64,000 nucleotides of DNA from Ancylobacter oerskovii (GTDB taxonomy: Bacteria > Pseudomonadota > Alphaproteobacteria > Rhizobiales > Xanthobacteraceae): contig NZ_JAHBGB010000033.1 of the NCBI RefSeq assembly GCF_018390555.1, positions 1 to 64,000 on the forward strand, in the 5' to 3' direction. Position numbers and translations under genes: made by a program. Under the pieces are notes generated by a model that was given only the letters and a program-made list of their open reading frames with translations, was not told where the DNA came from and made no database searches. This document shows positions 44,036 through 60,784 of the stretch, in pieces (within the stretch, counting starts at the first letter, position 1; every line of letters starts with the position of its first letter).

Positions 44036-44170
44036 ATGATGGTGCCTAGGAGAGAGGGCCAGAAGGCACCATCGATAGAGGAACTTACGGACAAGTGGGA
44101 CGAAAAATCGCCCATTGATCCAAAAGGCTTTTTCGGCGGGGACGTCCCACCGGAAGAACCCGAGGAATGA
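44036..44170 (+). CDS. 44-residue frame: integrase tail separated by integration
   Basis: A short open frame, MMVPRREGQKAPSIEELTDK and then WDEKSPIDPKGFFGG, ending in the acidic VPPEEPEE. Its stop overlaps the primase start by ATGA. It begins in the left attachment core and its reading frame through VPRR is the same as that of the integrase through the right core. In the excised circle it would be the C-terminal 42 residues of the integrase. In the integrated state the ATGs at 44036 and 44039 come from the host side or the junction, so expression as a separate peptide is doubtful. Confidence 0.6.
   Translation: MMVPRREGQKAPSIEELTDKWDEKSPIDPKGFFGGDVPPEEPEE
44040..44054 (+). other. Left attachment core (attL)
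   Basis: TGGTGCCTAGGAGAG, 14 of 15 bases identical to the CCA end, acceptor strand and start of the T stem of tRNA-Leu at 60669-60683. It marks the left end of the element. Confidence 0.85.
44093..44108 (+). other. Arm-type integrase site, left
   Basis: AAGTGGGACGAAAAAT, identical to 60613-60628, 38 bases from the left core. An inverted GTCCCACCG follows at 44144-44152. See the finding on the attachment site. Confidence 0.6.
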
Positions 44171-46035
44171 GCGACTTTCCCGACCTCATGGAGGCTGTCG
44201 CGCGGCGGCTGCTTGGGGAACCGAACCGGGCACACTCGAAGCATGACGAGTGGCGGTACGGGTCCAATGGCAGCCTGTCGGTGCGCATCGGCGGGCCACA
44301 TAAGGGCACCTGGCGCGACCATGAAGCCGGCGAAGGCGGGGGCGTGCTCGACCTGATCGCCCGCGTCAACGGCGGCGGGCACCATGACGCGATCACCTGG
44401 CTGAAGCAGGAGTTTCCCGACTTCGCCGGGCAGCCGGAGATCTCGCCGAACAAGACCCGCACGGTTGCGACCTATCCCTATCTCGACGAGGCCGGAGAGC
44501 TGCTGTTCGAGGTGGTGCGCCTGGAGCCGAAGAGCTTCCGCCAGCGGCGGCCGGATGGCGCCGGCGGGTATGTGTATAACGTCAAGGATGTCCGGCAGGT
44601 GCCCTACCATCTGCCGGAGCTGATCGAGGCGATCGGGTCCGGGCACACCGTCTACATCGTGGAGGGCGAGAAGGACGTCGACCGCCTGCGGGCGCTAAAC
44701 ATCCCCGCGACCTGCAATGCCGGCGGCGCCGGCAAATGGCGGCTCGACTATGTCGAGCACTTCCTTGGTGCCGACGTCGTCATCCTGCCCGACAATGACG
44801 AGGCCGGCCGCGAGCATGCCGAGAAGGTGGCGCGGGCGCTCGCCCCCGTCGCCGCCCGCATCCGCGTGCTGGCGCTGCCCGAGCTGCCGCGCAAGGGCGA
44901 CGTGTCGGACTGGCTCGCCGCCGGCGGCACGGTGGAGCGGCTGCATCAGCTCGCGGACGCGACGGCGAACTGGCGCCCGGCCGCCGTCACCCGCCTGCCG
45001 GCGGTGTGGTGGGGCGAGGAGGACAAGCAGCCGCCGCTCGCCTGGCTGGTGAAGGGGCTGCTGGTCGAGGGCGGGCTGTCGACGGTGTACGGCCCGCCCG
45101 GCACCTCCAAGAGCTTCCTGGTGCTCGACCTCGCCCTGCATATCGCCCATGGACGCGACTGGTTCGGCCGGCGCGTCGCCGAGGGTGGGGTTGTCTATGT
45201 CTCCGGCGAGGGCGGCTCCGGCATGCGCATGCGCATGAAGGCGTGGCGGCAGGAGAAGGGTGGCGAGCCGGGCAAGCCCTTCGTGCTGATCCCGTCCTCG
45301 GTGAACCTGTTCGACGATGAGGAGGGCGTCGAGACGCTGATCGCCGATGTGAAGGAGCATCGGGCGGCAATGACCGCGCCGCTGCAGCTGGTGGTGCTCG
45401 ACACACTGTCGCGCATGATCGGCTCCGGCGACGAGGACAAGGCCCGCGACATCAATGTCGTGGTGAACAAGGCGGAGCGGATGCAGCGCGAGCTGGGCTG
45501 TCATGTCCTCGTCGTGCACCACTCCGGCAAGGACCGCGACCGCGGCGCACGGGGCTCCAATGCCCTGCTCGGCGCGGTGGACGCGGCGATCGAGATCACC
45601 CGCCACGAGACGGGTGTGTGCGAAGGCAAGATCGCGAAGGTGAAGGACGGCGGCGAGATCTCGCCCCTCAAGTACGAGCTGCTGCAATCGGTCCTCGGGA
45701 CCGACGAGGACGGTGACGACGTCACCTCCTGCGTCGTCATGCCCACGGATGCGAGCACCGGCGAGACCAGGGGTACACCGCGGCTCTCCGACCAGGCGCG
45801 CATCGCGCTCGATGCACTGAGGCAGGCCATCGCCGAGGAGGGCGAACCCTCGCCCGGCGGGCAGATCCCCAACAGCGTGCGCGTCGTCGATGTCGACCGG
45901 TGGCGAGACTATGCCTACCGGCGCGGGATCGGCGACACACCGGAGGCGAAGAAGAAAGCTTTCCAGCGCGCCCGCGAGAACCTGTCGAGCAAACAGATCA
46001 TCGCGATCAGGGAGCCATGGGCATGGATCATCTGA
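44167..46035 (+). CDS. Primase-helicase (Toprim plus AAA ATPase)
   Basis: A 622-residue replication protein. A degenerate zinc-free primase N terminus (to about residue 130) is followed by a Toprim domain with VYIVEGEKDVDRLRALNIPA and DNDEAGREHA (about 160-225), the Glu and D-x-D metal ligands. Then comes a RepA/DnaB-like ATPase, Walker A YGPPGTSKSFL (about 310-320), Walker B LVVLDTLSRM (about 408-417) and an Arg-rich GKDRDRGARGSNALLGA motif. It probably initiates replication of the excised element. Its start overlaps the stop of the 44-codon frame by ATGA. Confidence 0.88.
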   Translation: MSDFPDLMEAVARRLLGEPNRAHSKHDEWRYGSNGSLSVRIGGPHKGTWRDHEAGEGGGVLDLIARVNGGGHHDAITWLKQEFPDFAGQPEISPNKTRTVATYPYLDEAGELLFEVVRLEPKSFRQRRPDGAGGYVYNVKDVRQVPYHLPELIEAIGSGHTVYIVEGEKDVDRLRALNIPATCNAGGAGKWRLDYVEHFLGADVVILPDNDEAGREHAEKVARALAPVAARIRVLALPELPRKGDVSDWLAAGGTVERLHQLADATANWRPAAVTRLPAVWWGEEDKQPPLAWLVKGLLVEGGLSTVYGPPGTSKSFLVLDLALHIAHGRDWFGRRVAEGGVVYVSGEGGSGMRMRMKAWRQEKGGEPGKPFVLIPSSVNLFDDEEGVETLIADVKEHRAAMTAPLQLVVLDTLSRMIGSGDEDKARDINVVVNKAERMQRELGCHVLVVHHSGKDRDRGARGSNALLGAVDAAIEITRHETGVCEGKIAKVKDGGEISPLKYELLQSVLGTDEDGDDVTSCVVMPTDASTGETRGTPRLSDQARIALDALRQAIAEEGEPSPGGQIPNSVRVVDVDRWRDYAYRRGIGDTPEAKKKAFQRARENLSSKQIIAIREPWAWII

Positions 46036-46040
46036 TGAAG

Positions 46041-46130
46041 CGGGACATGAATGTCCCGGCGGGACAGTCCCGGTTGTCCCGGTGGCAGCGGGACACGGGA
46101 CATCCCCTTGGAGGGGATGTCCCGTGTCCC
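46041..46130. repeat. GGGACA array with 19-bp hairpin, candidate replication origin
   Basis: Directly after primase, nine copies of GGGAC(A) or its complement lie in 90 bases: CGGGACAT-GA-ATGTCCCG (46041-46058), CGGGAC-A-GTCCCG (46060-46072), TGTCCCG (46075-46081), and a perfect 19-bp stem with 3-base loop at 46090-46130 whose arm is GGGACACGGGACATCCCCT. Iterons plus a strong hairpin beside an initiator gene fit an origin. The rest of 46,131-46,366 holds nothing evident. Confidence 0.65.
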
Positions 46131-46366
46131 AACACCCCGACCACCGCCGCCGCCCTGCTCGACCTGGCAGGGCGGGTGCGGTGACTGGTGCCGAGCCATC
46201 GGGATCCGGAGGCTTTCCACGAGGCCAAGTCCGAGATCGAGGCCGAACTCCGGCAGCTGGCACGGGTCCTCCCCGGGCCTGATGTATGCGGGCGGCGACA
46301 GCGCATGACCGCGCTAGATGAGCCGGATTTGAGCGCTAAACTCCGGCGCTTGAGAAAGGGTTGAGG

Positions 46367-46972
46367 ATGCAGGATTTGCATGGCTTCAGCCTGTTCGGCG
46401 ACCATCCCGCTCCGCCGGCGGAGACCCTCTCCAAGAAGGGCTTCGCCGAGCTGATCGGCGTGTCGCCGGGCCGCGTCTCGCAGCTGATCGCCGCCGGGCT
46501 GCCGGTCGAGCCGAACGGGCGCATCCACATCGCCCGCGGCAAGGCCTGGGTGGCGGAGAATGTCGATCCGAACCGCCGCCGCGCCTCGCTCGACGCACCA
46601 TCTCCGGCACACCTGTCGCCGCGGGCCATGCGCGATGCCGCCGAGGCCGAGATCGCGCGGCTGAAGGCCGAGCGCATGGGCCGCCAGCTGATCGACCGCG
46701 CCGCCACCCTGCGCACCATCGAGGCCCGCGCCCGCTTCGAGCGCGACGCCTGGCTCGGCTGGGTGAACCGCGCCGCCACCCTGCGCACCATCGAGGCCCG
46801 CGCCCGCTTCGAGCGCGACGCCTGGCTCGGCTGGGTGAACCGCGCCGCGCCGGAGATCGCCAGCACCGCCGGCGCCGACCTCGCCGTCGTGGTCGGCGTG
46901 CTCGACCGGCTGGTGCGCGCCCAGCTCGTCACCCTCGCCGACATGCCGCTGGAGGATATCCCGCATGACTGA
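46367..46972 (+). CDS. Terminase small subunit-like protein with internal 24-residue duplication
   Basis: A 201-residue protein. An N-terminal winged helix-turn-helix of the Nu1/TerS type (KKGFAELIGVSPGRVSQLIA, about residues 24-43) recognises the packaging site, and helical regions follow. Two exactly identical 24-residue segments lie side by side (residues about 110-133 and 134-157), from a 72-bp perfect tandem DNA repeat at 46695-46838. It overlaps TerL by eight bases. ATG 46367 is preferred to TTG 46361. Confidence 0.72.
   Translation: MQDLHGFSLFGDHPAPPAETLSKKGFAELIGVSPGRVSQLIAAGLPVEPNGRIHIARGKAWVAENVDPNRRRASLDAPSPAHLSPRAMRDAAEAEIARLKAERMGRQLIDRAATLRTIEARARFERDAWLGWVNRAATLRTIEARARFERDAWLGWVNRAAPEIASTAGADLAVVVGVLDRLVRAQLVTLADMPLEDIPHD
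46695..46838 (+). repeat. 72-bp perfect tandem duplication inside the TerS gene
   Basis: Bases 46695-46766 and 46767-46838 are identical, and the match continues a few bases into the following sequence. The length is a multiple of three, so the frame is kept and the protein gains 24 residues. Confidence 0.9.
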
Positions 46973-48851
46973 CCTTGCCGACCTCACCGCCGAGCTGGTC
47001 GACGCGGCCTGGCGGCGTGGCCTACGGCCGGAGCTGCAGCTGACCGTGACGGAATGGGCGGACGCCAACCGCATCCTGCCCGGCACCAATGCCGAGCCGG
47101 GGCCGTGGCGGACGTCGCGGGTGCCGTACCTCAAGGCGATACAGGACTGCCTCTCCACCTCCTCGCCGATCGAGCGCGTCGTGCTGATGAAGGGCGCGCA
47201 GACCGGCGGCACCGAGGCGGGGCTGAACGCCATCGGCTACTGGATCGCCCATGCGCCCGGCCTGGTGCTGGCGGTGTGGCCGTCGATCGACATGGTGCGG
47301 CGGAACTCGCGTACCCGCATCGATCCGTTGATCGATGGCACGCCGGCGCTGAGGAGCCGCATGGCGCCGGCCCGCGCCAAGGATCCCGGCAACACCGTCG
47401 GGCTGAAAGAGTTTCCCGGCGGCGCGCTGGTGATGACCGGCGCCAACTCGGCGACCGGCCTGCGCTCGACGCCGGCGCGCTACCTGGTGCTCGACGAAGT
47501 CGACGCCTTCCCGGCCGATGCCGATGGAGAAGGCGATCCCGTCGCGCTCGCCGTGCAGCGCACCGTCACCTTCCGCGGCCGGCGCAAGATCTTCCTGATC
47601 TCCACCCCGACCGAGGCCGGGGTGTCGAGGATCGAGAAGGCCTATGCCGAGAGCGACCAGCGGCGCTACTTCGTGCCCTGTCAGCATTGCGGCACGCATC
47701 AGGTGCTCGTCTGGCGCGGCGTCACCTGGCCGGAGGGCGAGCCGCGCAAGGCGTTCTACGCCTGTGAGACCTGTGGCGGGGTGATCGAGGAAGCCGACAA
47801 ACCGGCGCTGCTGGCCAAGGGCGAATGGCGGGCGACGGTGGAGGGCGACGGGCTCACGGTCGGCTTCCACCTCTCGGCGCTCTACTCGCCCTTCGAGAGC
47901 TGGGGCGAGATCGCCGCCGACTTCGTCGCCTCCAAGCGCGATCCCGCCCGGCTGAAGACCTGGACCAATCTGAAGCTGGGCGAACCCTATGAGGATCGCG
48001 ACATGGCGCCGCTGGCGCCGGACAGCCTGCAGGCGCGCGGGATCTCCTGCGACACCCCATGGACGGAGCTGCTGCCGGAGGGCGTCGCCGTCGTCACCGC
48101 CGGCGTCGACACTCAGGATGATCGCATCGAGGTGGAGTTCGTCGGCTGGGGCCGTGGCGAAGCCAGCTGGTCGCTCGACTATGAGATCCTGCACGGCGAC
48201 ACCTCGCGGCCGGAGGTGTGGGGCGCGCTCGATGGCCTGCTGCTGCGCCGCTTCCGCCACTCCAAGGCCATCCCCGATCTGCCGGTGCTGGCGGCGGCCA
48301 TCGATTCCGGCGGGCATCGCACCGACATGGTGATGAAGTTCTCGGCCGAGCGGCTCAACCGCCGCGTTTGGGCGATCAAGGGCCGCGGCGGCCCGGGCGT
48401 GCCGCCCTGGCCCAAGCGTCCGCCCAAGCTGCGCATCGCCAACCTCGCTCCGGTGCACATCGTCGGCGTCGATACGCTCAAGCACGGCCTGCTCTCGCGC
48501 CTGCGCATCGAGGACGGCGGGCACGGCGCCTGCCAATGGCCATCGGATCGCGATTATCTGTGGTTTACCGGTCTCGTCGCCGAGCGGCCGGTGCGCCGCT
48601 ACACCAAAGGCGTCGCCCCCATCGAGTGGGTGCCCGATCCCGGCGTGCGCAACGAGCCGCTCGACTGTCGGGTGTACGCCACGGCGGCGCTGCATGGGCT
48701 TTATGCGGCGGGGATGTCGCTGGCGGAGGCGGTTGCCAGGCTGGACGCCGCCGGCCCCAGCACCGACACCTCTGCACCCACTTCCGCGCTTCCAGCCTCA
48801 TCGGCGACGCCGTCCGGCGTCGTCCGCTCCAAGTGGTTATCAGGAGCATGA
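46965..48851 (+). CDS. Terminase large subunit, GpA family
   Basis: A 628-residue DNA-packaging motor of the lambda GpA type. The ATPase has the adenine/Walker A-like KGAQTGGTEAGLN (about residues 69-81) and Walker B RYLVLDEVDAFP (about 171-182). A zinc-like pair C-Q-H-C and C-E-T-C follows at about 244-272. The nuclease half has VTAGVDTQDDRIEVE and LAAAIDSGGHRTDMV, the acidic metal-binding clusters. It overlaps TerS by eight bases. A decayed second copy of part of this gene lies at about 49,885-50,106. Confidence 0.92.
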   Translation: MTDLADLTAELVDAAWRRGLRPELQLTVTEWADANRILPGTNAEPGPWRTSRVPYLKAIQDCLSTSSPIERVVLMKGAQTGGTEAGLNAIGYWIAHAPGLVLAVWPSIDMVRRNSRTRIDPLIDGTPALRSRMAPARAKDPGNTVGLKEFPGGALVMTGANSATGLRSTPARYLVLDEVDAFPADADGEGDPVALAVQRTVTFRGRRKIFLISTPTEAGVSRIEKAYAESDQRRYFVPCQHCGTHQVLVWRGVTWPEGEPRKAFYACETCGGVIEEADKPALLAKGEWRATVEGDGLTVGFHLSALYSPFESWGEIAADFVASKRDPARLKTWTNLKLGEPYEDRDMAPLAPDSLQARGISCDTPWTELLPEGVAVVTAGVDTQDDRIEVEFVGWGRGEASWSLDYEILHGDTSRPEVWGALDGLLLRRFRHSKAIPDLPVLAAAIDSGGHRTDMVMKFSAERLNRRVWAIKGRGGPGVPPWPKRPPKLRIANLAPVHIVGVDTLKHGLLSRLRIEDGGHGACQWPSDRDYLWFTGLVAERPVRRYTKGVAPIEWVPDPGVRNEPLDCRVYATAALHGLYAAGMSLAEAVARLDAAGPSTDTSAPTSALPASSATPSGVVRSKWLSGA

Positions 48852-48902
48852 CGATCATACCAGGCAACGCGCGGACCTTCAGGGGGCCGGGCTGTGGCTG
48901 AA

Positions 48903-48917
48903 TTGCCAAATTGGCAA
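48903..48917. promoter_or_regulatory. Dyad TTGCCAA-A-TTGGCAA before the Fic toxin-antitoxin genes
   Basis: A perfect 7-bp inverted repeat with one central base, 101 bases upstream of the antitoxin start. It fits an operator of the fic locus. Confidence 0.45.
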
Positions 48918-49017
48918 CGTCCCGGAAAGGCGCCATATACCAAACTCAAGAACAGTCCGAATCCTGAATGCGCATGGTCAGCGCGTTGTAGGACCGAGCT
49001 GCGAGCGGGAGGCCGGA

Positions 49018-49203
49018 ATGACGAATGAACTCAAGAAGCTGATCGAGGCGGCCAAGCGTGTGGAACCGTCCCCCGAGCACCGCGAAGAGCAGCGGCGCAG
49101 CTTCGCCTATGGGAATACCCATTTCGAGAATTCGCGCATCACGCGAGAAATGGTGAATGAACAGGCTGAGAAGCTGGCGAGGCAGGAGCGTGACGGACAC
49201 TGA
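49018..49203 (+). CDS. Small Fic antitoxin-like protein
   Basis: A 61-residue helical protein starting TNELKKLIEAAKRVEPSPEH, then RRSFAYGNTHFENSRITREM. The second part matches small proteins adjacent to Fic genes in alphaproteobacteria. In such antitoxins a helix with (S/T)-x3-E-(G/N) inserts into the Fic active site; here the segment reads NTHFEN, with N in the S/T place. ATG 49018 has GGGAGG upstream. It overlaps the Fic gene start. Confidence 0.65.
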   Translation: MTNELKKLIEAAKRVEPSPEHREEQRRSFAYGNTHFENSRITREMVNEQAEKLARQERDGH

Positions 49204-49870
49204 TGGTCCCGCCCAGCGTCACAGCCGGGCGAATGAAGCTGAACTGATCACCGATCCGATACTCAAGGCGGAGGCGGAGGCTCTCAACGGCCTCCGCCAA
49301 TTTGATGCCGGGCGAGCAATGATCCATGCCGCGCTTGATCGCGGTTCTTTCAAGCTCCGCCTGTCGCATGTTCTCGGCCTTCAGCGTGAAGCGTTGGCTG
49401 GCATCAGCAGCTATGCCGGCAATTTTCGGCCGGCTGGCGTCGCGATCGAAGGCAGCAAGCACGAGCCGCCTGGCGCACATCTGGTGCCCGAACTGGTGGA
49501 AGAGCTGTGCGACTATGTGAATGAAAGCTGGACGGAGAAAAGCGCGATCCATCTCGCCGCCTACATCATGTGGCGGCTCAACTGGATCCACCCCTTCGCC
49601 GACGGTAACGGCCGCACCTCGCGCATCACGTCCTACGTCGTTCTCTGCATCAAGCTCGGGGCGGATTTACCGGGCCTGCCGACGATCCCGGACCAGATCA
49701 CCTACAATCGCAAGCCATATTTCGACGCGCTCGACGCGGCTGATGCAGCGTGGCGGGATGGTCACCTTGACCTCACGAAGATGGAAGAGCTGTTGTCCGG
49801 TATGCTCGCCAAGCAACTGCATGGCGCTTACGAGCAGGCTGGCGGCGTGCCTCCAGACAGCACAGAGTAG
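49190..49870 (+). CDS. Fic-domain protein (probable AMP-transferase toxin)
   Basis: A 226-residue protein. The Fic motif is complete: HPFADGNGRTSR at residues 134-145. Its His is catalytic and the Asn/Gly anion hole binds the nucleotide. Fic toxins usually AMPylate DNA gyrase and topoisomerase IV or other targets; the target here is unknown. The GTG at 49190 overlaps the antitoxin gene by 14 bases, arguing for coupled translation of a toxin-antitoxin pair. Confidence 0.85.
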   Translation: MTDTDGPAQRHSRANEAELITDPILKAEAEALNGLRQFDAGRAMIHAALDRGSFKLRLSHVLGLQREALAGISSYAGNFRPAGVAIEGSKHEPPGAHLVPELVEELCDYVNESWTEKSAIHLAAYIMWRLNWIHPFADGNGRTSRITSYVVLCIKLGADLPGLPTIPDQITYNRKPYFDALDAADAAWRDGHLDLTKMEELLSGMLAKQLHGAYEQAGGVPPDSTE

Positions 49871-49884
49871 TCTTCTTTACAACC

Positions 49885-50106
49885 AGAGCCGCAGCGAGCC
49901 GAACTGGTCGCTCCATGATAAGCTCCTGCATTGCGACACCACTTGGTCGGAACTGTGGGCTTGATCGATTACTGCCGCGCAGCTTCCTTGATGCCAAGGC
50001 CGCCCCCGATCTGCCGGTGGCGGGTGGCCTTCCGGCCACCATCGCATCGATATGGTGATGCGATGGCGGCCGAGCGACTCAACCGGCGCATTTGGGGCGA
50101 TCACCC
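49885..50106 (+). pseudogene. Relic of a second terminase large subunit gene
   Basis: This 220-base stretch aligns with terL bases of about 48,140-48,385. Shared pieces are CTGGTCGCTC, GATCTGCCGGTG, ATGGTGATG, GCGGCCGAGCG and CTCAACC. Frameshifts and gaps show it is not translated. It lies between the Fic gene and the restriction-methylation gene. Confidence 0.7.
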
Positions 50107-50167
50107 ACGCCGCGACCCCACTTTACTTCATTTATTAGTTGGTAATTTTGTGGTGCCAATTTGATGC

Positions 50168-53100
50168 ATGGGGAATGGGCAAGAAATTAATAAAAAATTA
50201 CCAATCGCTGATTTTATCAAGCGATGGTCCAATCTTGATGGCGGTCAAGAGCGAGCGAACTATTCTCTTTTTTTATCCGAACTATGCGATGTGATTGGCG
50301 TCAAACGTCCCGATCCTGCACGAGCGGCCCATGACTTCAACGACTATGTATTTGAACGGCGTGTAGAGAGAAAACGTCCAGACGGGACAAACGAAACAGG
50401 GCGCATCGATCTATACAAGCGCGGGTGCTTTATCCTGGAGGCAAAGCAGAGCCGGCTCCGCGGCGGCAAGAAGGCAGTGATCGAAGGTCAAGCAGACCTA
50501 TTCGCCACGACGGAAACGGGGCCGGCGAACACGGCAGCGTACGGCCTCGATCACGTCATGGTCCAGGCGCGCCGACAAGCCGAGCGATATGCAGCTTCGT
50601 TGCCCGCCGACCATCCATATCCACCGTTCATCATCGCGTGCGACGTGGGGCGCGCTATTGAGCTCTACGCCGATTTTTCCGGTCATGGACGCCACTATGC
50701 CCAATTTCCTGATGCTCGGCAGTTTCGTATCGAACTTGGTCAACTGGAGAGCCCAGAAACCCTCGAACTGCTACGTTCGGTATGGGAAAAGCCTCAATCC
50801 CTAGATCCAGCACAGAAGACGGCCAAGGTAACCAGAGAGATTGCCGGGCGGTTGGCGGAAATCTCCAAAGCGCTTGAGGGACGTGGCTTCGAGGCCCGCA
50901 GCGTAGCAATTTTCCTTATGAGGTGCCTGTTCACGATGTTCGTCGAGGACGTGGGGCTGATGCGGAAGAAAGGTTTCACGGAACTTCTGACGAGGTGCCT
51001 CGACGATTCCATGCGATTTACCTTCGAGATCGAAGACCTCTGGCGTCACATGGACCGCGGTGACTACTCGCCCGGCATCGGCGAGAGACTACTACGTTTT
51101 AATGGCAAACTCTTTAAAAACGCCGCGGCGCTCCCTCTAACGAAAGACGAGATACGCCTTCTCCGCGATGCTTCGGATGCCGACTGGCGTGATCTGGAGC
51201 CTGCGATATTCGGCACCCTATTCGAACAGGCTCTGGACCCAATCGAGCGAAAGCGTCTCGGTGCACACTACACACCGCGCGCTTATGTCGAGCGGGTGGT
51301 GGATGCCACAATCGTCACGCCCCTCACCGAGGATTGGATCAGCCATCAATCAGCCGCCGAGCGTGCGATCCGCAACGGATCAACGGCGGCCGCCATTCGC
51401 GAGGTAGAAGATTTCCTGAGGCACCTGGCATCGATGCGGGTACTCGATCCGGCATGCGGGACAGGAAATTTTCTCTACGTCGCTCTCCGTCGGATGAAAC
51501 AGCTAGAAGGCGAGGCTCTCAAGCAACTGCAGGATATCGGCGGCGACGAGGCGGTCGCACGCGTCACCGGCATCTCGGTAAAGCCGGACCAATTCTTCGG
51601 CATGGAACTCAATAGGCGAGCTGTCGAGATTGCCGAACTGGTCCTATGGATCGGCTACATTCAGTGGCATATGAGGACCCGGTCCACTGTGCCCCCGGAG
51701 CCGGTTCTGGGCAGCAGCGACCATGTTCATGGCAAAGATGCCCTCATCACGTGGTCGGGCTATCCCCATCCGCAACTTAAGCGCGATGCATTGGGCAAGC
51801 CAGTGATCGATGGGCAAGGTAACGAAACCTACGCCTACCCGAACGCAGTCAGCGCCGATTGGCCGGAAGCTGACTTCATTGTCGGCAACCCTCCGTTCAT
51901 CGGCGGGAAGGATATTCGCGGGCGACTGGGCGCCGGTTACGCCGAAGCATTGCGGAGCGCCAAGCCGCAAATGAATCCTGCGGCGGATTTCGTGATGTAC
52001 TGGTGGGACCATGCTGCCCAACTGCTCGTCCGGAAGGGAACTCGACTGCGTCGCTTTGGCTTCGTCACGACGAACTCAATAACGCAGGTATTCCAGCGGC
52101 GTGTCCTTGAGCGACATCTAGCGGGAACATCCCCCGTTTCGTTGGTGCTCGCCGTTCCGGACCATCCATGGACCAAGGCCTCCAAGGATGCAGCTGCAGT
52201 CAGAATTGCGATTACGGTAGCTGAGGCTGGCGACCGGGATGGCGTTGTGCGCATTGCGATCAGAGAGGAAAATCTCGACACCGATGAGCCCTTGATCGAG
52301 TTTGCGGAACGTGAGGGTAAGATCAATCCTGATCTTACGATCGGCGTGGATGTGACTAAAGCGAAGGCCCTGGTGGCCAACGATGCGATCTGCTCCCCCG
52401 GCGTGAAGCTCCACGGTGATGGCTTCATCATCTCGCGAGAAAAAGCCATTGAGCTCGGCCTTGGAAAGCGACCGGGCCTTAATCAGCATATTCGGGAGTA
52501 CCGAAACGGCAGGGATCTGACATCACGACCCCGTGGAGTGATGGTTATCGACCTGTTTGGATCTACCGCAGCGGAAGCTCGGCGCGACTTCCCCGAAGTC
52601 TATCAGCATCTTCTTGAAACAGTTCGAAATCAGCGAGCTGAAACGTTCGCGAAATCGCCGACCAAGGACGCGCAGGACTATTTGGATCAATGGTGGATTT
52701 TCGGAAAGCCAAGAATTGAGCTCCGCCCGGCGTTGGAAGGCCTGCCCCGTTATATCGCCACCGTTGAAACCATGAAGCACCGCCTATTTCAGTTCATGGA
52801 ATTAGAAGTACTTCCAGACAACATGCTGGTTGTTATAGCGTCAGGCGAAGCATTTCACCTCGGCGTACTATCCTCAAAAGTGCATGTGACTTGGGCTTTA
52901 CGTACTGGAGGCCGGCAAGGTGTCGGCAACGATCCAAGATATTCGAAGTCTCGGTGCTTCGATCCCTTCCCATTCCCCGACGCCACCTCGTCGGCTCGCG
53001 CGAGAATCGGTGCCATTGCCGAAGAACTCGATGAGACGAGAAAACAAGTTCTTGTCGAACATCCCGACCTGAATCTGACCACGCTCTACAATGTTCTCGA

Positions 53101-53670: not shown

Positions 53671-53904
53671 TTACCTCTTCCTCAACCGCACACCAGGCCC
53701 TTCGCCATTTTCGGCGACGAAGATGACGCCGGCGGCTTCGAGAGCAGCCTGTATGGCGGCGAGGTTGTTCCTCGTTGGCGTTCTGCGCCCCTTCTCGAAA
53801 TCAACGATCACGTTCCGGGAAACTCCGGCGGCCTCAGCGAGTGCCGCTTGATCCAATTCGACCAAGGCCCGAGCCGCCCGGCACTGTGCTGATCCAATGG
53901 TCAT
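53671..53904 (-). CDS. XRE-type helix-turn-helix regulator
   Basis: A 77-residue single-domain repressor-like protein. The helix-turn-helix is in ALVELDQAALAEAAGVSRNV and IVDFEKGRRTPTRNNLAAIQ, about residues 12-55. ATG 53904 is chosen because the frame before it is unlikely to be translated. It is the only gene of the element on the minus strand and is divergent from the gene at 53994; an inverted repeat lies in between. It likely keeps the element quiet in the integrated state, but this is inference. Confidence 0.75.
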   Translation of the reverse strand: MTIGSAQCRAARALVELDQAALAEAAGVSRNVIVDFEKGRRTPTRNNLAAIQAALEAAGVIFVAENGEGPGVRLRKR

Positions 53905-53913
53905 GATGCCCAA

Positions 53914-53964
53914 CGTTGCGCATGATGTTGCCATTAGCACCAACATTGAGCATGGTGCGTAACG
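53914..53964. promoter_or_regulatory. Imperfect inverted repeat in the divergent control region
   Basis: CGTTGCGCATGATG at 53914-53927 and CATGGTGCGTAACG at 53951-53964 are reverse complements at 12 of 14 positions, with CATGATGTTG and CAACATTGAGCATG adding a partial inner repeat. It is a probable operator pair for the XRE regulator. Confidence 0.5.
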
Positions 53965-53993
53965 TCTAACACCGTTACCACAGGAGCACGCGC

Positions 53994-54416: not shown

Positions 54417-54754
54417 ACGCGCATGTTCGTCATTTCACCATGGTGGAGGAAGGCGCCCTGCGGCAGCGGATCGAGGCGGTCATCGAGAGCATGCTTTCGC
54501 TGCTCGACCAGCTCGACGGCGATCCCGATCTCGAACCGAGCCTTGGAGGCAATCTTCCCTATCTCGACGCTGACCCGCGGCTGGTCGACATCGAGGGCGA
54601 CGAGGTCGAATTGCTCGAGGGTTACGACGAGGATGCCGAGGAGGACGATCCGGGCGAAGACGAGCACGACCGGGAATACACCTCGATAGAGCGCCACGGC
54701 ATGAGCTTCTGCAGCCCGTCGCCGGACGACGAGGAACAGGAGGCGGGCATATGA
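54413..54754 (+). CDS. Acidic hypothetical protein
   Basis: A 113-residue, strongly acidic protein with a helical N-terminal part (LRQRIEAVIESMLSLLDQLD) and an Asp/Glu-rich C-terminal half. No motif is recognised. Start ATG 54413 overlaps the previous stop. Its stop overlaps the next ATG, so the three genes are translationally coupled. Confidence 0.6.
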   Translation: MNAHVRHFTMVEEGALRQRIEAVIESMLSLLDQLDGDPDLEPSLGGNLPYLDADPRLVDIEGDEVELLEGYDEDAEEDDPGEDEHDREYTSIERHGMSFCSPSPDDEEQEAGI

Positions 54755-55080
54755 TCACCCGTCGCCGCCTGTTGATCAGCGCTGGCCCGGCGCTCGTTGC
54801 CACACCTGCCGCGGCTCTATGCCTTGCACCTGTGACGCCGCCCGCCGATCCCATGGAACGCGCCCGCCGTGCCTGATCGGACTTCTCGGAGGCGATGGAC
54901 GAGATGACGGCCGATGCCCATGGTTGGCTCATCATGGGAGCCGGACATCGCCGAGCCTTCGATCATTTTCGGCAGAAGGATAGCCGGTGGCTCAATATCA
55001 ACCGGATCAATCTCGTCGAGGATGTGGAGGCGCGGTTTGGGATGACTGAGCATCTCAAACGCATCCTGTTCGAGATGTGA
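54751..55080 (+). pseudogene. Gene interrupted by an in-frame TGA
   Basis: From ATG 54751 the frame codes an RR-type signal region (TRRRLLISAGPALVATPAAA) and reaches ERARRA, then a TGA at 54874-54876. The same frame goes on SDFSEAMDEMTADAHGWLIM to a second stop at 55078-55080. The upstream part resembles the protein at 53994, so both halves were probably one protein of about 109 residues. A TGG-to-TGA change is a likely cause. Confidence 0.6.
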
Positions 55081-55147
55081 GGCGTGGCTTGCCAGCCTGA
55101 AAGCAGGCTCGCCGAAAAACGGAACGTGGCACTTCCCACGCTGGGCG

Positions 55148-55169
55148 TATCGTGTTACTAACCACGATA
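55148..55169. promoter_or_regulatory. Dyad TATCGTG-N8-CACGATA before the MerR-like gene
   Basis: A perfect 7-bp inverted repeat with an 8-base spacer, 16 bases upstream of the start at 55186 and overlapping a larger imperfect repeat of CCCACG and CGTGGG. It is probably the operator of the structural operon. Confidence 0.55.
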
Positions 55170-55185
55170 ACGTGGGAGATATCAC

Positions 55186-55698
55186 ATGAACGGCCAGCGC
55201 ATTTCCATCATCCGGGAGACGTTCAGTGCCGCCGAGGTCGAGGCCATTACCGGCATTTCCCAGGTCGCGCTGCGTGATTGGCGGCGCCGCAAGATCCTCA
55301 AGACCAAGAGCGTGAGCAACCGCGCAATCTATTATGTCTACGACCTCGGCTACCTGATGGCTCTCCAAGCACTTACCTCCCAAGGTGTCGCTGTCGGGAC
55401 CGCGGCTATGGCGGCCAGATTGGCCGGGCCGATGATCGAACATTTCGCCGAGGTCATCAGCGTCGCGGCGGAGGATGCGGCCTTCGTTGGCTTCCACGGT
55501 AGGCGCATCGCTCGCTTCCTGATCGTTGCGCAGGACGGCGATATCGTTCGCGCGGGGGCTGTCGATGACTGGGTGAGAATGCGTGACGAGCAGGGCAAGC
55601 CCGCTTCCGCCTTTTTCATCGACTGCAAAGCACTCGGCGAGCAGATCGTCCAAAAAGCCCCGCGTCCGGTGGTTTCCGTCGAGCACGAGGGCGCGTGA
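55186..55698 (+). CDS. MerR-type helix-turn-helix regulator
   Basis: A 170-residue protein with an N-terminal winged helix-turn-helix of MerR kind (FSAAEVEAITGISQVALRDW, about residues 13-32, then a basic RRRKILKTKS) and a longer C-terminal domain of about 110 residues that may sense a signal. GGGAG precedes ATG 55186. It is the first gene of the operon that runs to the integrase, overlapping portal (TGATG), so it may control structural gene expression. Confidence 0.7.
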   Translation: MNGQRISIIRETFSAAEVEAITGISQVALRDWRRRKILKTKSVSNRAIYYVYDLGYLMALQALTSQGVAVGTAAMAARLAGPMIEHFAEVISVAAEDAAFVGFHGRRIARFLIVAQDGDIVRAGAVDDWVRMRDEQGKPASAFFIDCKALGEQIVQKAPRPVVSVEHEGA

Positions 55699-57080
55699 TG
55701 AACGGCTTCCTCGCTTCCTTTTTTGACCGGGCCATCAATGCGCTCCGTCCGTCGCAGCGCTCCTATGAGGGCGCGTCCGCCAGCCGTCGTGCGTCGGGCT
55801 GGGGCAAGATGGCGAACCAGCACGGCGCGGCGCAGGCGGCCCGTGCGCCGCTCGCCCAGCGTGCCCGCTACCTGGTCGCCAACAACCCGCACGCCGCGAT
55901 CAGGTCAGCCTGGACGACGGCCCTGGTCGGCACCGGCATCGTGCCGGCGATCACCGGCAAACTGGCGGAGCGCTGGACGGCTTGGACCGACGAGGCGGAC
56001 GCTGATGGCATGTGCGATTTCTACGGCCTGACCGCGCTGATGGTCGGCGGCATGATCGTCGACGGCGAGGCGTTGGCGCTGATGATCGCCACCCCGGCCG
56101 GCCTACGGATCCGCGTGCTGCATCCCGACCAGCTCGACGCCTCGCTGACCCGGCCGCTGGCCGCCGGCGGGCGCATCGTCAACGGCGTCGAGTTCGACAT
56201 GTTCGGCACCCGCGTCGCCTACTGGATCATCAAGGAGCGGCCGGAGATCGGCCTCGGCCTCAACCTCCAGCCGGTGCGCGTCCCGGCCGAGGACGTGATC
56301 CATCTGTTCCGCCCCGACTTCCCCGGCCAGGTGCGCGGCGTGTCGTGGTTCGCCCCGGCGATCCTGCGGCTTGGTGAGATTGACGAATGGCACGGCGCCC
56401 AGCTCACCCGCCAGAAGATCGGCGCGCTGCTCGCCGGTGTCATCACCACCAATGATGGCGCGGTGCCGTTCGGCGGCGAGGCGCAGGGCGAAGCGATCAT
56501 CGGCTCACTGGAGCCCGGCGCCATGGTAGTCTTGCCGCCGGGCAAGGACGTGAGCTTCTCCAATCCGCCGGCGATCGCCCAGGAGGCCAACGACTTCGCC
56601 CGCATCACCCTGCATGAGATCGCCGCCGCGCTCGGCTTGCCCTATGAGGTGCTGACCGGCGACCTCTCTGCCGTGAACTATTCCTCGATCCGCGCCGGCC
56701 TCGTCGAGTGGCGCCGGCGGATCGAGATGCTGCAGCATAATGTCATCGTCTTCCAGGCGCTGCGGCCGATCTGGCGCCGCTGGGTGATGCTGGAGAGCCT
56801 CGCCGGCCGCATCGAGGGCCGGATCGAGGATCTGCTCCCCGTGCGCTGGATCACCCCGAAACAGCAATGGGTCGATCCGGGCAAGGACGTGCAGGCGGAG
56901 ATCGACGCCATCAATGCCGGGCTGATGAGCCGGCGCGAGGCGGTGGCCGCCCGCGGCATGGACGTCGCCGCGCTCGACGCGGAGATCGCCGCCGACAAGG
57001 CCCGCGAGGCCAGCCTCGGCCTCAGCTTCGCCGCTCCAGCCAAGGCGCCCGCCCTCGCCAACATCGGGGGCGCAGCATGA
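55698..57080 (+). CDS. Phage portal protein, lambda family
   Basis: A 460-residue portal protein. The lambda-type portal core includes HAAIRSAWTTALVGTGIVPA, RVLHPDQLDASLTRP, DVIHLFRPDFPGQVRGVSWF, LGLPYEVLTGDLSAVNYSSI and PVRWITPKQQWVDPGKD. The portal is the ring at one vertex of the capsid through which DNA is packaged. ATG 55698 shares its first base with the previous stop. It overlaps the next gene by four bases. Confidence 0.9.
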   Translation: MNGFLASFFDRAINALRPSQRSYEGASASRRASGWGKMANQHGAAQAARAPLAQRARYLVANNPHAAIRSAWTTALVGTGIVPAITGKLAERWTAWTDEADADGMCDFYGLTALMVGGMIVDGEALALMIATPAGLRIRVLHPDQLDASLTRPLAAGGRIVNGVEFDMFGTRVAYWIIKERPEIGLGLNLQPVRVPAEDVIHLFRPDFPGQVRGVSWFAPAILRLGEIDEWHGAQLTRQKIGALLAGVITTNDGAVPFGGEAQGEAIIGSLEPGAMVVLPPGKDVSFSNPPAIAQEANDFARITLHEIAAALGLPYEVLTGDLSAVNYSSIRAGLVEWRRRIEMLQHNVIVFQALRPIWRRWVMLESLAGRIEGRIEDLLPVRWITPKQQWVDPGKDVQAEIDAINAGLMSRREAVAARGMDVAALDAEIAADKAREASLGLSFAAPAKAPALANIGGAA

Positions 57081-57262
57081 TGGGCGACAAGCTGCAGCCG
57101 CTGTGGCGCCAGTTCTGGCGTGCCGCCTTCCCGCTGCTGGATCCGAAGGCTCTCTCGCTCGACGAGCTGCGCCGGATGGAGACCGCCGCCGCCATGTGGC
57201 ACGCCGATCTCAAGCGGGCGCTCGACCAGCGGCAGGCCCGCTACGGGAGGAAGCCGGCATGA
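57077..57262 (+). CDS. Small helical protein between portal and protease/capsid
   Basis: A 61-residue helical protein (LRRMETAAAMWHADLKRALD) with a basic end. It sits between portal and the protease/capsid gene, a place often occupied by small joining or scaffold proteins. No family is certain. ATG 57077 overlaps the portal stop; its stop overlaps the following start. Confidence 0.6.
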   Translation: MMGDKLQPLWRQFWRAAFPLLDPKALSLDELRRMETAAAMWHADLKRALDQRQARYGRKPA

Positions 57263-59091
57263 ACGCGCCCTCCGACATCATCATCCGCCGCGCGCCTCTG
57301 GCCGCGACCAGCTGGAACCCCGACGAGCGCACCTTCGAGGTGGTGTTCTCGACCGGGGTCGGGGTCGAGCGCCAGGACGAGCGCGGCCACTTCCTCGAGC
57401 GGCTCTCGTTGGCTCAGGACTGGAGCGCCTTCATCGGCGCACCGGTCCTGAACAGCCACCGCCGGGGCATCCTGACCGATGTGCTGGGCTCCGTCCTCAC
57501 AGCATGGACGGTCGGCGGGAACCGAGAGGCCCGCGCGATCATCGGGATGTCCCGGCGGGACGATGTCGAGCCGATCATTCAGGACATTCTCGACGGGCAC
57601 CTGCGCGGTGTGTCCGTCGGCTACGCCGTTCACGACTGGGCCGAGACCACCGAAGGCGGCCGGCGGGTGAAGACCGCCACGCGCTGGACCCCGGTGGAAC
57701 TCTCCATCGTCCCGATTCCCGCCGACCGTCAGGCCATCATTCGAGGGAATGAGACAATGACGGCATCTGCCCAGCCGGAGTCCGCTCCGGTCACGACCCT
57801 GCCCGCCGCGGCGGTCCCCACCCCCACGGCGTCCGCGGACCGGGCCGCCGTCAATGCGGAGATCCGCTCCATCGGTGCCGTCGCCGGGCTCGACCAGGGC
57901 TGGATCGACGGCCAGATCGACGCCGGTGCTCGCGCCGACGCTGCCCGTGCCGCCGCCTTCCAGGCGATGCAGACCCGCACTGCGCCGCTGCAGACGATCC
58001 GCACCGTCGCGCCGATGGTGACGGTGGATCACACCGACCCGGCGTCGATCCGCTCAGCGATGGGCGACGCACTGGCGCACCGCCTGGCGCCGGGCCGGGT
58101 CAAGCTGGAAGGTCGCGCCCGCGACTTCTCCGGTTACCGCATGCTCGACATGATCGGCGGCCTTGCCGAGGCACGCGGCGAGCGTATCAATCTGCGCGAC
58201 CAGAACGCACTGATGGAGCGCGCCGTCGGCGCTCACTCGACCAGCGACTTCCCGCTGTTGCTGGCCGACGCCGCCAATAAGAGCCTGCTCGCCAACTACG
58301 CCGCCGCCGAGCCGACCTATCGCCGCTGGGCTGGCCGACGCTCCTTCACCGACTTCCGCGACCATTCCTTCCTGCGCATCGGCGACTTCCCGCAGTTCCA
58401 GGAGACCGCGGAGAATGGCGAGCTCAAATACGGCACCATCAGCGAGAACCGCGAGAAGGTGCGGGCGAAGGAGCTGAATGCCGGCATCGCCATCGGCCGG
58501 CGGGCGCTGATCAATGACGACCTGTCGGCACTGGCCGACTTCTCGTCGATGATCGCCATCCGCGCCGCCGCCGACGAGAATGCCCGGGTCTATGCGCTGC
58601 TCGCCGCCAATGCCGCCCTGTCGGACGGCATCGCGCTCTTCCATGCCAGCCATGGCAACAAGGCAGCGGCCGGCGCGGCGATCACCGTCTCCTCGCTCAG
58701 CCTCGCGGTGGCGGCGCTGCGCAAGCAGAAGAGCCTCGACAGTGTGCCGCTCAACCTCGCGCCGCGCTTCCTCGTGGTCGGGCCGGAAAAGGAGCTGGAA
58801 GGCCGCCAGGTGCTCGCCGCCGTCACTGCCACCAAGGCGGGCGACGTCAACCCATGGGCGGGCACCATGGAGCTGGTGGTCGACGCCAACATTGCCGGCA
58901 ATGGCTGGTACGTCGTCGCCGACCCGGCGGCGGCGCCCAGCGTGGTCTATGGCTACGTCTCCGGCGCCGAGGGGCCGCAGATCCGCACCGAGATCGACTT
59001 CGACACCCGCGCCGTCAAGGTCGCGGCCGGGCTCGACTTCGGCTGCGGCGTCATCGACTTCCGCGGCCTCTACCAGAATGAGGGGGTGTGA
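57259..59091 (+). CDS. Prohead protease/major capsid protein fusion
   Basis: A 610-residue protein. The N-terminal third is an HK97-type prohead protease with His67 (VLNSHRR) and Ser119 (LRGVSVGYAV) as catalytic residues. A Pro/Thr/Ala-rich linker spans about 158-192. The C-terminal part from about residue 210 is the major capsid protein (FPQFQETAENGELKYGTISE and GAEGPQIRTEIDFDTRAVKV). Fusions of this kind are known in some phages. After assembly the protease cleaves the scaffold-like N-terminal part. Confidence 0.85.
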   Translation: MNAPSDIIIRRAPLAATSWNPDERTFEVVFSTGVGVERQDERGHFLERLSLAQDWSAFIGAPVLNSHRRGILTDVLGSVLTAWTVGGNREARAIIGMSRRDDVEPIIQDILDGHLRGVSVGYAVHDWAETTEGGRRVKTATRWTPVELSIVPIPADRQAIIRGNETMTASAQPESAPVTTLPAAAVPTPTASADRAAVNAEIRSIGAVAGLDQGWIDGQIDAGARADAARAAAFQAMQTRTAPLQTIRTVAPMVTVDHTDPASIRSAMGDALAHRLAPGRVKLEGRARDFSGYRMLDMIGGLAEARGERINLRDQNALMERAVGAHSTSDFPLLLADAANKSLLANYAAAEPTYRRWAGRRSFTDFRDHSFLRIGDFPQFQETAENGELKYGTISENREKVRAKELNAGIAIGRRALINDDLSALADFSSMIAIRAAADENARVYALLAANAALSDGIALFHASHGNKAAAGAAITVSSLSLAVAALRKQKSLDSVPLNLAPRFLVVGPEKELEGRQVLAAVTATKAGDVNPWAGTMELVVDANIAGNGWYVVADPAAAPSVVYGYVSGAEGPQIRTEIDFDTRAVKVAAGLDFGCGVIDFRGLYQNEGV

Positions 59092-59300
59092 TGGCCGACG
59101 CGGTCACGCTTCAGCAGCGTCTGGAGAAGCTCCGCGAGGCGCGCGCGTCGGGTGTCCGACGCGTGCGCTACTCGGATGGGCGCGAGCATGAATATCGCTC
59201 CGATGCGGAGCTCGCCTCCGCCATCGCCGATATCGAGCGCCAGCTCTCCGCCGGCGCAGCGCCGAAGGTCGCCTACCTCGTCTCAAGCAAGGGATTGTGA
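59091..59300 (+). CDS. gpW-like head-tail joining protein
   Basis: A 69-residue protein of the gpW type: LQQRLEKLREARASGVRRVR, a beta hairpin YSDGREHEYRSD and a final helix LASAIADIERQL. gpW joins packaged heads to tails. It lies directly after the protease/capsid gene (one-base overlap). It is the only connector gene found. Confidence 0.75.
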   Translation: MADAVTLQQRLEKLREARASGVRRVRYSDGREHEYRSDAELASAIADIERQLSAGAAPKVAYLVSSKGL

Positions 59301-59304
59301 GGCG

Positions 59305-59505
59305 ATGGCACGCACCAAGATCCGCTTCAAGGCATCCGACGTCACCCGCGCGCTGAAAGGCGCGCAGGCGGCGGGCATCGCCTTTCCGCGCCTGGAGATC
59401 GAACCCGACGGCCGCATTGTCGTCGTCACCGAAAAGATCGTTCCGCCGGCGGTTGTCGCGACGGACGAACCCGCCCCGAACCCCTGGGACGAGGCACTGT
59501 CCTGA
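59305..59505 (+). CDS. Small conserved protein upstream of the integrase
   Basis: A 66-residue protein starting ARTKIRFKASDVTRALKGAQ, then LEIEPDGRIVVVTEK, of a type found just before integrases of alphaproteobacterial elements. A role in excision is possible by position only. ATG 59305 follows the previous stop by four bases. Confidence 0.6.
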   Translation: MARTKIRFKASDVTRALKGAQAAGIAFPRLEIEPDGRIVVVTEKIVPPAVVATDEPAPNPWDEALS

Positions 59506-59506
59506 C

Positions 59507-60784
59507 ATGGCTCGCCCGAACCCGCCCCATTTGTCCCGCGATATGGACCGGCACGGCAATGTGCGCTGGTATGTGCGCATGCCGGGAAAGCTGAAGGTCC
59601 GTATCCGGGCAGAGTATGGGACACCGGCGTTCTGGACCGCCTATAGCAATGTGCTGGCTGGCCGGCCGATCGCGAAGAAGGTGGGGCAACGTGTGGAGAA
59701 GGCGCCAGCGGTTTCCGGCTCGCTGCGCGCGCTTTGCGAGGCCTACTATCGCAGTGCTGAATATAAGGGCCTCGACCCGACGACCCAGCGGGTACGTCGC
59801 GGCATCCTTGAGCGCCTGTGCCAGGAGACGACCCCTTCGGGCAAGCCCTGCGGCGACCTCCCCTATGCGCCGATGCTGCCGCGGCACATCCGCGCCATGC
59901 GGGACAAGCGCGCGGAAACGCCGGGTGCGGCCAACTCCATGGTGAAAGCGCTGCGGCAGATCTTCGCCTTCGCGATCGCCAACGATCTGGCGGACACCAA
60001 TCCGGCGAAGGAGGTGCCCTACTTCCCGGCGGTGCGAGCCGATGGCATTCCCGCCTGGTCGGATGAAGACGTTCAGGCGTTTGAGGAAGCGCACCCGCCC
60101 GGCACCATGGCACGTCTGGCGCTGATGCTGTTCCTCGAATTCGGCCAGCGGATTTCCGATATTCACCGGCTGGGGCCGGCAATGGTGAAGGACGGGGCCA
60201 TCACCTTCACGCAGTGGAAGAACCGCCGGCGCAAGCCGGTACAGCTGACGCTACCGATCAGTGCCGAGTTGCAGGCCGTGCTGGGCATACTGCCGACCGG
60301 GCGGGAAACGTTCCTGGTGAGCGAATGGGACCGGCCGTTCAAATCGACCAAGACCTTCGGCAACAAGTTCCGTGACTGGTGCGACGAGGCGGGCCTGTCC
60401 GGCCGCTCGGCTCATGGCCTGCGCAAATATTTCGCCGCCAAGCTCGCCGAGCATGGTGCGAGCGACCGCGAGATCATGTCGATGACCGGTCACCGGACGT
60501 CAAAAGAGGTGGATCGCTATACCCGTTCCGCGAGCCAGAAGCATCTCGCGAAGGCCGCACGGTTGAAGCTGTCGGCGATCGAGATTGTCCCACCGTTTTC
60601 GGCGACGTCGGAAAGTGGGACGAAAAATGCAGCTAAGTCTCTGCCAGAAAAAGCTTTTTCTAGCGAGTTGGTGCCCAGGAGAGGACTCGAACCTCCACGG
60701 TGTTACCCACTGGTACCTGAAACCAGCGCGTCTACCAATTCCGCCACCTGGGCACATGCCTTGCGGCACGGCGGCGACACATAG
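59507..60784 (+). CDS. int: Tyrosine recombinase (integrase) reading into the tRNA
   Basis: A tyrosine integrase of 425 residues in the integrated state. Catalytic residues: Arg in FGQRISDIH (about 215), H-x-x-R in HGLRKY (about 302-305), His in TGHRTSKE (about 329) and nucleophile Tyr in VDRYTRS (about 338). The N-terminal part is the arm-binding and core-binding domains. The last 38 residues are read from the antisense strand of tRNA-Leu. After excision the C terminus would instead be the 44-codon frame at the left end. It ends the structural operon. Confidence 0.9.
   Translation: MARPNPPHLSRDMDRHGNVRWYVRMPGKLKVRIRAEYGTPAFWTAYSNVLAGRPIAKKVGQRVEKAPAVSGSLRALCEAYYRSAEYKGLDPTTQRVRRGILERLCQETTPSGKPCGDLPYAPMLPRHIRAMRDKRAETPGAANSMVKALRQIFAFAIANDLADTNPAKEVPYFPAVRADGIPAWSDEDVQAFEEAHPPGTMARLALMLFLEFGQRISDIHRLGPAMVKDGAITFTQWKNRRRKPVQLTLPISAELQAVLGILPTGRETFLVSEWDRPFKSTKTFGNKFRDWCDEAGLSGRSAHGLRKYFAAKLAEHGASDREIMSMTGHRTSKEVDRYTRSASQKHLAKAARLKLSAIEIVPPFSATSESGTKNAAKSLPEKAFSSELVPRRGLEPPRCYPLVPETSASTNSATWAHALRHGGDT
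60613..60628 (+). other. Arm-type integrase site, right
   Basis: AAGTGGGACGAAAAAT, identical to 44093-44108, 40 bases from the right core and inside the integrase gene. An inverted GTCCCACCG lies further out at 60587-60595. Confidence 0.6.
60669..60683 (+). other. Right attachment core (attR) in tRNA-Leu
   Basis: TGGTGCCCAGGAGAG, the CCA end, acceptor strand and first T-stem bases of tRNA-Leu on the minus strand. It matches the left core with one mismatch. Confidence 0.85.
60669..60753 (-). tRNA. tRNA-Leu (anticodon CAG)
   Basis: An 85-nt class II tRNA on the minus strand with encoded CCA. Acceptor stem GCCCAGG/CCUGGGC; anticodon stem CUGGU/ACCAG with loop UUCAGGU, giving CAG; a long variable arm (GUGGGUAACACC) and T arm GGAGG-UUCGAGU-CCUCU. 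The element sits on its 3' side and supplies the present 3' end. Confidence 0.95.

What the first reader, a model, noticed from the sequence alone, without database searches (positions are those of the whole stretch)
44036..60784. Integrase is split by integration: its true C terminus lies at the other end of the element and is coupled to primase
Seen: the integrase frame crosses the right core as LVPRR and then reads host tRNA antisense. The left core begins a 44-codon frame in the same phase (VPRR, then EGQKAPSIEEL), so joining the two cores gives a 430-residue integrase. That frame ends with ATGA shared with the primase start. So only in the circle does integrase have its own tail and sit directly upstream of primase. 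Inference: excision swaps the C terminus and joins the two operons, a form-specific protein plus a replication switch.
Basis: partly seen in the sequence, partly recalled or inferred. Interest (0 to 1): 0.9.

Follow-up and report, generated by a model that had tools for sequence, protein, structure and literature searches.

The report
Integrase reading frame split by insertion
A virus-like element in a bacterium has its insertion site inside its own integrase gene, so the gene's last stretch lies at the far end of the inserted element; in close relatives that stretch ends exactly on the start of the next gene, here a DNA-replication gene, which suggests that cutting the element out also wires integrase to replication, a twist on something already known from phage Mx8.

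Summary
The integrase frame (ATG 59507) enters the right core as LVPRR and runs into antisense tRNA-Leu. The left core opens a 42-codon frame in the same phase (388 + 42 = 430 codons), whose stop shares ATGA with the primase start. Empty tRNA sites in 5 of 29 congeners support the element's ends.

Relatives support it. In 9 of 9 right ends of the close clade (integrases at least 63% identical; tRNA-Leu, tRNA-Phe, one other sequence) the frame crosses the core. All 9 left ends carry the tail, 8 in exact phase; in the ninth the left core lacks one base. In 9 of 9 the tail's stop shares ATGA or GTGA with the next start, although that gene differs (AAA_25 primase, VapE-like, or a short ORF).

Residues before the core look unconstrained (pN/pS 0.89), the tail weakly constrained (0.66-0.75). 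Its conserved pieces are mostly inferred integrase arm sites and a ribosome-binding stretch. The frame is kept better than its residues, so I favour excision-dependent coupling over a specialised C terminus. No joined junction was found and no expression data exist. The split gene is known from Mx8, circle-dependent expression from Tn916; the combination is a new variant.

The parts
59507..60670 (+). Integrase body, 388 codons before the core's GTG; catalytic Tyr is residue 338 (assigned by motif)
   Evidence: PF00589 at residues 196-344; alignment with 8 relatives
60669..60683 (+). Right core, 3' end of tRNA-Leu; integrase reads it as L-VPRR
   Evidence: sequence; tRNA
60684..60784 (+). Host-encoded C terminus of the integrated integrase, mostly antisense to tRNA-Leu
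   Evidence: differs by target in relatives
60669..60753 (-). tRNA-Leu(cag), intact integration target
   Evidence: ARAGORN
44040..44054 (+). Left core, one mismatch (T at 44047)
   Evidence: the five empty sites printed and the left core of L075 have C
44042..44170 (+). Left tail frame, 42 codons and TGA, in phase with the integrase frame
   Evidence: tail present in 9 of 9 clade left ends
44095..44150 (+). Inferred integrase arm sites on the left: GTGGGAC 44095-44101 and GTCCCAC 44144-44150
   Evidence: read; conserved columns and fixed spacing
60587..60621 (+). Inferred arm sites on the right: GTCCCAC at core-82 and GTGGGAC at core-54
44167..46035 (+). Primase/helicase (AAA_25, sub-threshold Toprim); start shares ATGA with the tail stop
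43984..44020 (-). Terminator-like hairpin that probably belonged to tRNA-Leu, now 16.6 kb from it
   Evidence: lies within about 50 bases of the tRNA in 5 congeners
46361..46972 (+). Small terminase
   Evidence: phrog_57
46965..48851 (+). Large terminase (GpA type)
49157..49870 (+). Fic/DOC family protein
   Evidence: PF02661
50168..53626 (+). MmeI-like restriction-modification enzyme
53671..53946 (-). HTH repressor-like protein
55695..57080 (+). Portal protein
57103..59091 (+). Head protease and major capsid fusion
59088..59300 (+). Head-tail adaptor Ad1
   Evidence: phrog_2545

Best explanation
The attachment site (core plus arm sites on both sides) lies inside the 3' end of the integrase gene of a capsid-encoding, satellite-like element. 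Integration into the 3' end of a tRNA gene cuts the frame: the integrated integrase gets a short host-encoded tail antisense to the tRNA, and the element's own 39-42 codon tail is left at the opposite end (frames shown, proteins inferred). Excision would restore the frame, and the restored frame ends on the start codon of the next gene, in this element the primase. The most likely role is coupling: in the circle, ribosomes (and probably transcripts) pass from integrase through the attachment site and re-initiate at the replication gene, while in the integrated form that gene is cut off behind a host terminator-like hairpin. The tail residues themselves matter little; what is kept is an open frame and the stop/start overlap.
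For: Frame and ATGA overlap. Element ends supported by empty tRNA-Leu sites with the same flanking hairpin in 5 of 29 other congeners. Crossing frame in 9 of 9 close right ends. Tail in 9 of 9 close left ends, core-to-arm span 62 in 8 and 61 in G014. Shared ATGA/GTGA in 9 of 9 left ends, plus G351, whose tail is unrelated and only 25 codons. Clade A keeps the overlap although the next gene is an AAA_25 primase (window by Pfam; L075 by 95% identity; G205 and G146 by a similar start, the G146 ORF being only 146 aa), VapE-like (G014 and G202; G203 by a similar 459-aa ORF) or a 77-aa ORF (G200, G201). In 6 elements whose integrase stops before the core no left frame has such an overlap opening 60 aa or more, in any phase. 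Stop-free frames unlikely by chance.
Against: No natural joined junction seen. No expression data; promoter scans found nothing in either region and are uninformative here. The overlap count is phylogenetically correlated; independent support is essentially clade A and G351. Six other elements whose integrase crosses the core have short in-phase tails (9-15 codons counted from the core) and no coupling, so crossing alone is common and may be neutral. Overlaps opening 60 aa or more are frequent in this GC-rich DNA (20% of random stops), so the two 77-aa cases weigh little.
Confidence: 0.5

Rival explanations
1. By-product: the attachment-site arms and the next gene's ribosome-binding site happen to lie downstream of integrase; the frame through them stays open mainly because arm and ribosome-binding sequences are fixed, and neither tail nor coupling matters.
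For: Conserved tail pieces coincide with inferred arm sites (GTGGGAC, GTCCCACC) and a GA-rich stretch before the start; arm spacing is as rigid in non-crossing relatives. Non-crossing outgroups read in the phase that matches the arm sites are open over 39 codons in 3 of 6. Linker pN/pS 0.89.
Against: No stop in any of 8 elements in either half (P 0.024 and 0.015); shared stop/start in 9 of 9 left ends and in G351 with an unrelated tail.
Confidence: 0.3
2. Form-specific integrase, as reported for Mx8: the two C termini give the integrated and free enzymes different activity, so excision or integration is biased.
For: Same gene arrangement as Mx8, where the changed 3' end modified the integrase's specificity (PMC6070905, passages). 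Tail pN/pS 0.66 (0.50-0.87), 0.75 (0.56-1.00) after masking arm and ribosome-binding codons; the tail frame gave 0.65 against 0.78 and 0.96 in the other forward frames.
Against: Integrated C termini vary with the tRNA or neighbour; linker unconstrained; predicted disorder from residue 360 (integrated form only). Six other crossing integrases have very short in-phase left frames.
Confidence: 0.15
3. Leader peptide: the tail works in the integrated state as a separate small ORF (the base before TGGTG makes an ATG or GTG) that couples to the replication gene.
For: ATG or GTG lies at the core in the 8 clade A left ends whose preceding base is held.
Against: It would need a host promoter; in the window a host hairpin lies just upstream, and the upstream bases shown differ between most hosts.
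Confidence: 0.05

Closest known systems
Myxococcus phage Mx8 intP/attP
   Same: attP lies in the coding sequence of a tyrosine integrase and integration gives the gene a new 3' end (PMC6070905 and PMC4383910, passages seen; two primary papers not held)
   Different: Here a capsid-encoding satellite-like element at tRNA genes; the free-form frame would end on a replication gene start; the C-terminal residues are poorly conserved
SSV-type 'suicidal' integrases of archaea
   Same: attP in the integrase gene, gene partitioned on integration (PMC8371274, passages)
   Different: There integration leaves two inactive gene parts; here it only exchanges a tail beyond the catalytic tyrosine. [quoted passage not shown]
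Tn916 circle-dependent expression
   Same: Genes for DNA processing lack a promoter when integrated and are read through the joined ends after excision (PMC11658703, passages)
   Different: There transcriptional, with antitermination; here an in-frame stop/start overlap is inferred as well
Mycobacteriophage BPs integration-dependent immunity
   Same: attP inside a coding frame gives two C termini by form (PMC4557955, passages)
   Different: The gene is the repressor and the free-form tail carries a degradation signal
Capsid-forming PICIs
   Same: Terminases, portal, capsid/protease and an adaptor with integrase and primase in 16.6 kb; definition from PMC10690885 passages
   Different: Helper dependence untested; no HNH endonuclease was recognised among the 13 element proteins scanned

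Membership tests
Mx8-like integrase with attP in its gene | Integrase frame runs through the attachment core | tested here: met
   9 of 9 right ends of the close clade, window included
Mx8-like integrase with attP in its gene | Integration replaces the C terminus in frame | tested here: met
   phase arithmetic; the junction itself was not observed
Mx8-like integrase with attP in its gene | The two forms differ in activity | not testable with these tools
   needs assays
SSV-type suicidal integrase | Split separates the catalytic domain from the N-terminal part | tested here: not met
   catalytic Tyr 338 lies 50 residues before the core
Circle-dependent operon (Tn916-like) | Downstream genes lie directly across the joined ends in the same direction | tested here: met
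   primase start at +127 from the core; by position, junction not observed
Circle-dependent operon (Tn916-like) | No expression when integrated, read-through after excision | not testable with these tools
   no RNA data; promoter scans empty
Capsid-forming PICI | Own capsid, portal, protease, terminases and connector | tested here: met
Capsid-forming PICI | HNH endonuclease in the packaging module | tested here: inconclusive
   none among 13 element proteins scanned; not every ORF was scanned
Capsid-forming PICI | No tail genes | tested here: inconclusive
   none among 13 element proteins scanned; not every ORF was scanned
Capsid-forming PICI | Dependence on a helper phage | not testable with these tools
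   none

The most novel reading that the evidence does not exclude
The attachment site is an in-frame hinge that senses the state of the element: only the excised circle has one continuous frame from integrase through attP to a stop shared with the start of the next gene, usually a replication gene. Selection keeps the frame and the overlap, not the residues, across exchanges of that gene and of the target tRNA. That would be translational coupling of replication to excision built into the attachment site.
Probability: 0.4. Interest if true: 0.72.

Novelty: new variant of a known kind. Interest (0 to 1): 0.52.

Why it matters
If true, a phage satellite couples DNA replication to its own excision by reading frame alone, without a dedicated regulator. 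It would also explain integrase ORFs that end in antisense tRNA sequence, and it gives a bacterial case, kept over two kinds of tRNA target, beside the self-disrupting integrases that one review describes as archaeal only.

Tried and rejected
Looking for a natural circle junction by arm-core-arm pattern: 0 in viral contigs and 0 of 391 family genomes. The pattern demands exact GTGGGRC and GTGGGAC and an intact core, so divergent junctions would be missed; records of the window's own genome may be left out of viral contigs. No metagenome scan was available. The phage and plasmid collections hold only integrases below 60% identity (27 and 35 records). Promoter scans gave no promoter. The plain overlap statistic was weakened after one search showed a 20% background for ORFs of 60 aa; I use the stricter rate. 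A tail search with one sequence in 200 relatives found 3 including the window, and with a profile in 297 order genomes 5 including the window; hits G185 and G269 proved to be non-crossing elements, and G341 was not followed. The second Fisher value printed used a wrong table and is not used; the first counted L075 as crossing and is replaced.

Rows left out of counts: L049 (right end only) and L075 (left end only, integrase not held) appear only on their side; L075 is therefore absent from the simulation and from the crossing counts. G200 and G201 ends were not shown to lie on one contig. L013, L037, L044 and L052 also seem to cross the core, but their left ends were not located. L049 did not match the right-arm pattern.
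Full report
What was checked. The integrase ORF begins at ATG 59507 (Phage_integrase) and reaches the right core at 60669-60683, which is the 3' end of tRNA-Leu(cag) on the minus strand. It continues through antisense tRNA to a stop at 60782-60784. The left core, 44040-44054, differs at one base. GTG 60671 and GTG 44042 are the same codon of the core; 388 codons precede it and 42 follow to TGA 44168, which shares ATGA with the primase start at 44167. The finding's numbers are correct, except that its 44 codons include two codons made wholly or partly of host DNA.

The ends. One search found this tRNA in 30 of 30 genus genomes, the window's own included. Of the 29 other loci, 5 gave a match to the window's left flank, a terminator-like hairpin at 43984-44020; printed, it lies within about 50 bases of the tRNA-Leu 3' end in all five, with no element between. 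The other 24 gave no left-flank match at the E-value used, through divergence or other insertions; in 4 of them (G001, G019, G020, G022) a related integrase lies within 100 bases of this tRNA.

Relatives. The integrase search found 46 of 200 relatives at E 1e-40, 11 of 397 order genomes and 3 of 385 class genomes at 1e-85 (own genome included in each), 15 loci in genome contigs and 16 in viral contigs. I call clade A the window plus those at least 63% identical: G014, G146 (same contig as Pinisolibacter L034), G200 and G201 (Xanthobacter), G202, G203, G205 and L049. All 9 right ends cross the core. What follows depends on the site: tRNA-Leu(cag) in window and G146, tRNA-Phe in G014, G200, G201, G202 and G203, tRNA-Leu(caa) in L049, and no recognised tRNA in G205.

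The tail lies at the other end. Left ends known: window, L075 (95% identical primase, integrase not held), G014, G146, G200, G201, G202, G203, G205. In 6 (window, G014, G146, G202, G203, G205) both ends lie on one contig. All 9 carry the tail. The core-to-arm span is 62 in 8 and 61 in G014, which lacks one base inside the left core; its tail is otherwise open. In 9 of 9 the stop shares four bases with a start: ATGA in 6, GTGA in 3. The downstream gene is a primase (AAA_25) in the window, in L075 by identity, and by sequence of its start in G205 and G146 (there only 146 aa, probably decayed); VapE-like in G014 and G202; a similar 459-aa ORF in G203; and a 77-aa ORF in G200 and G201, with a VapE-like gene further on in G201. 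So the tail travels with integrase while the next gene is exchanged.

Controls from more distant integrases. Six elements with located left ends have an integrase that stops before the core (G350, G269, G229, G185, G845, G196); none has a stop/start overlap opening 60 aa or more in any phase; one in G229 opens 52 aa. Seven more distant elements with located left ends cross the core. G351 (51%) has an unrelated 25-codon tail that also ends in ATGA, at the start of a 456-aa AAA_25 gene. G048, G018, G023, G149, G068 and a second G014 element have tails of 9-15 codons and no overlap opening 60 aa. Over crossing elements with both ends held the overlap is 9 of 15, against 0 of 6 (Fisher 0.019, not corrected for relatedness).

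Protein or DNA? pN/pS is 0.34 (residues 1-170), 0.25 (171-Tyr), 0.42 (next 18 residues), 0.89 (linker to the core) (8 elements); for the tail it is 0.66 (0.50-0.87), 0.68 without arm codons, and 0.75 (0.56-1.00) after masking ribosome-binding codons as well. In one search the tail frame gave 0.65 against 0.78 and 0.96 for the other forward frames, and non-crossing outgroups gave 0.82-1.20. Conserved tail residues (WDEK, VPPEE) coincide with inferred arm sites and the stretch before the next start. Arm sites sit at core-82 and core-54 in 8 of 9 clade A right ends (L049 did not match) and at core-81 and core-53 in the non-crossing relatives except G196, so rigid spacing is a property of attP, not of the frame. 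Still, no stop occurs in 8 elements in either half; with conserved columns fixed the simulated chances are 0.024 and 0.015. A model of the integrated form (15 sequences, mean pLDDT 79) is confident over most of residues 1-359, with a weak loop at 56-64, and has 360-425 below 50. The joined form was not modelled.

Reading. The frame and its shared stop/start look maintained while residues drift. That fits a conduit for ribosomes (coupling integrase to the next gene in the circle) better than a specialised C terminus. The host hairpin just upstream of the left end in the integrated form could insulate the replication gene; that is inference.

Element type. Terminases, portal, capsid/protease fusion and head-tail adaptor, with integrase, primase, repressor-like protein, a Fic protein and an MmeI-like enzyme, but no tail gene among 13 proteins scanned: it looks like a capsid-forming satellite; helper dependence is untested.

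What is known. Mx8 is the direct precedent for the split gene; the Islander paper states that Mx8 and SSV integrases extend across attP (passages). Tn916 is the precedent for expression through joined ends (passages). Searches of the open library listed no paper whose title or printed abstract start describes this combination in satellites; that is a limited library and not proof of absence.

Noticed in passing
window 44040-60683: The element looks like a capsid-forming satellite carrying an MmeI-like restriction enzyme and a Fic protein as cargo; the G014 relative carries AbiJ-like and AAA_21 genes.
   Followed up: partly
L066 (G014), left core: One base is missing from the left core beside an otherwise open tail; whether the circle would be in frame depends on the crossover point.
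   Followed up: partly
L050 / G205 right end: After the core the integrase reads DNA in which no tRNA is recognised, possibly a second element inserted at the same site.
   Followed up: no
L067 (G146): Element of only about 4.4 kb between cores, with a primase ORF of 146 aa: likely decayed.
   Followed up: no
congener tRNA-Leu sites in G001, G019, G020, G022: A related but distant integrase lies within 100 bases of this tRNA-Leu in 4 of 29 other congeners, so it seems to be an integration hot spot.
   Followed up: partly
crossing versus non-crossing relatives: Arm sites lie one base farther from the core on each side in clade A than in non-crossing relatives other than G196 (54/62 against 53/61), the shift that sets the phase.
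   Followed up: partly
window 46361-46969: The small terminase holds an internal repeat (NRAATLRTIEARARFERDAWLGWV twice).
   Followed up: no
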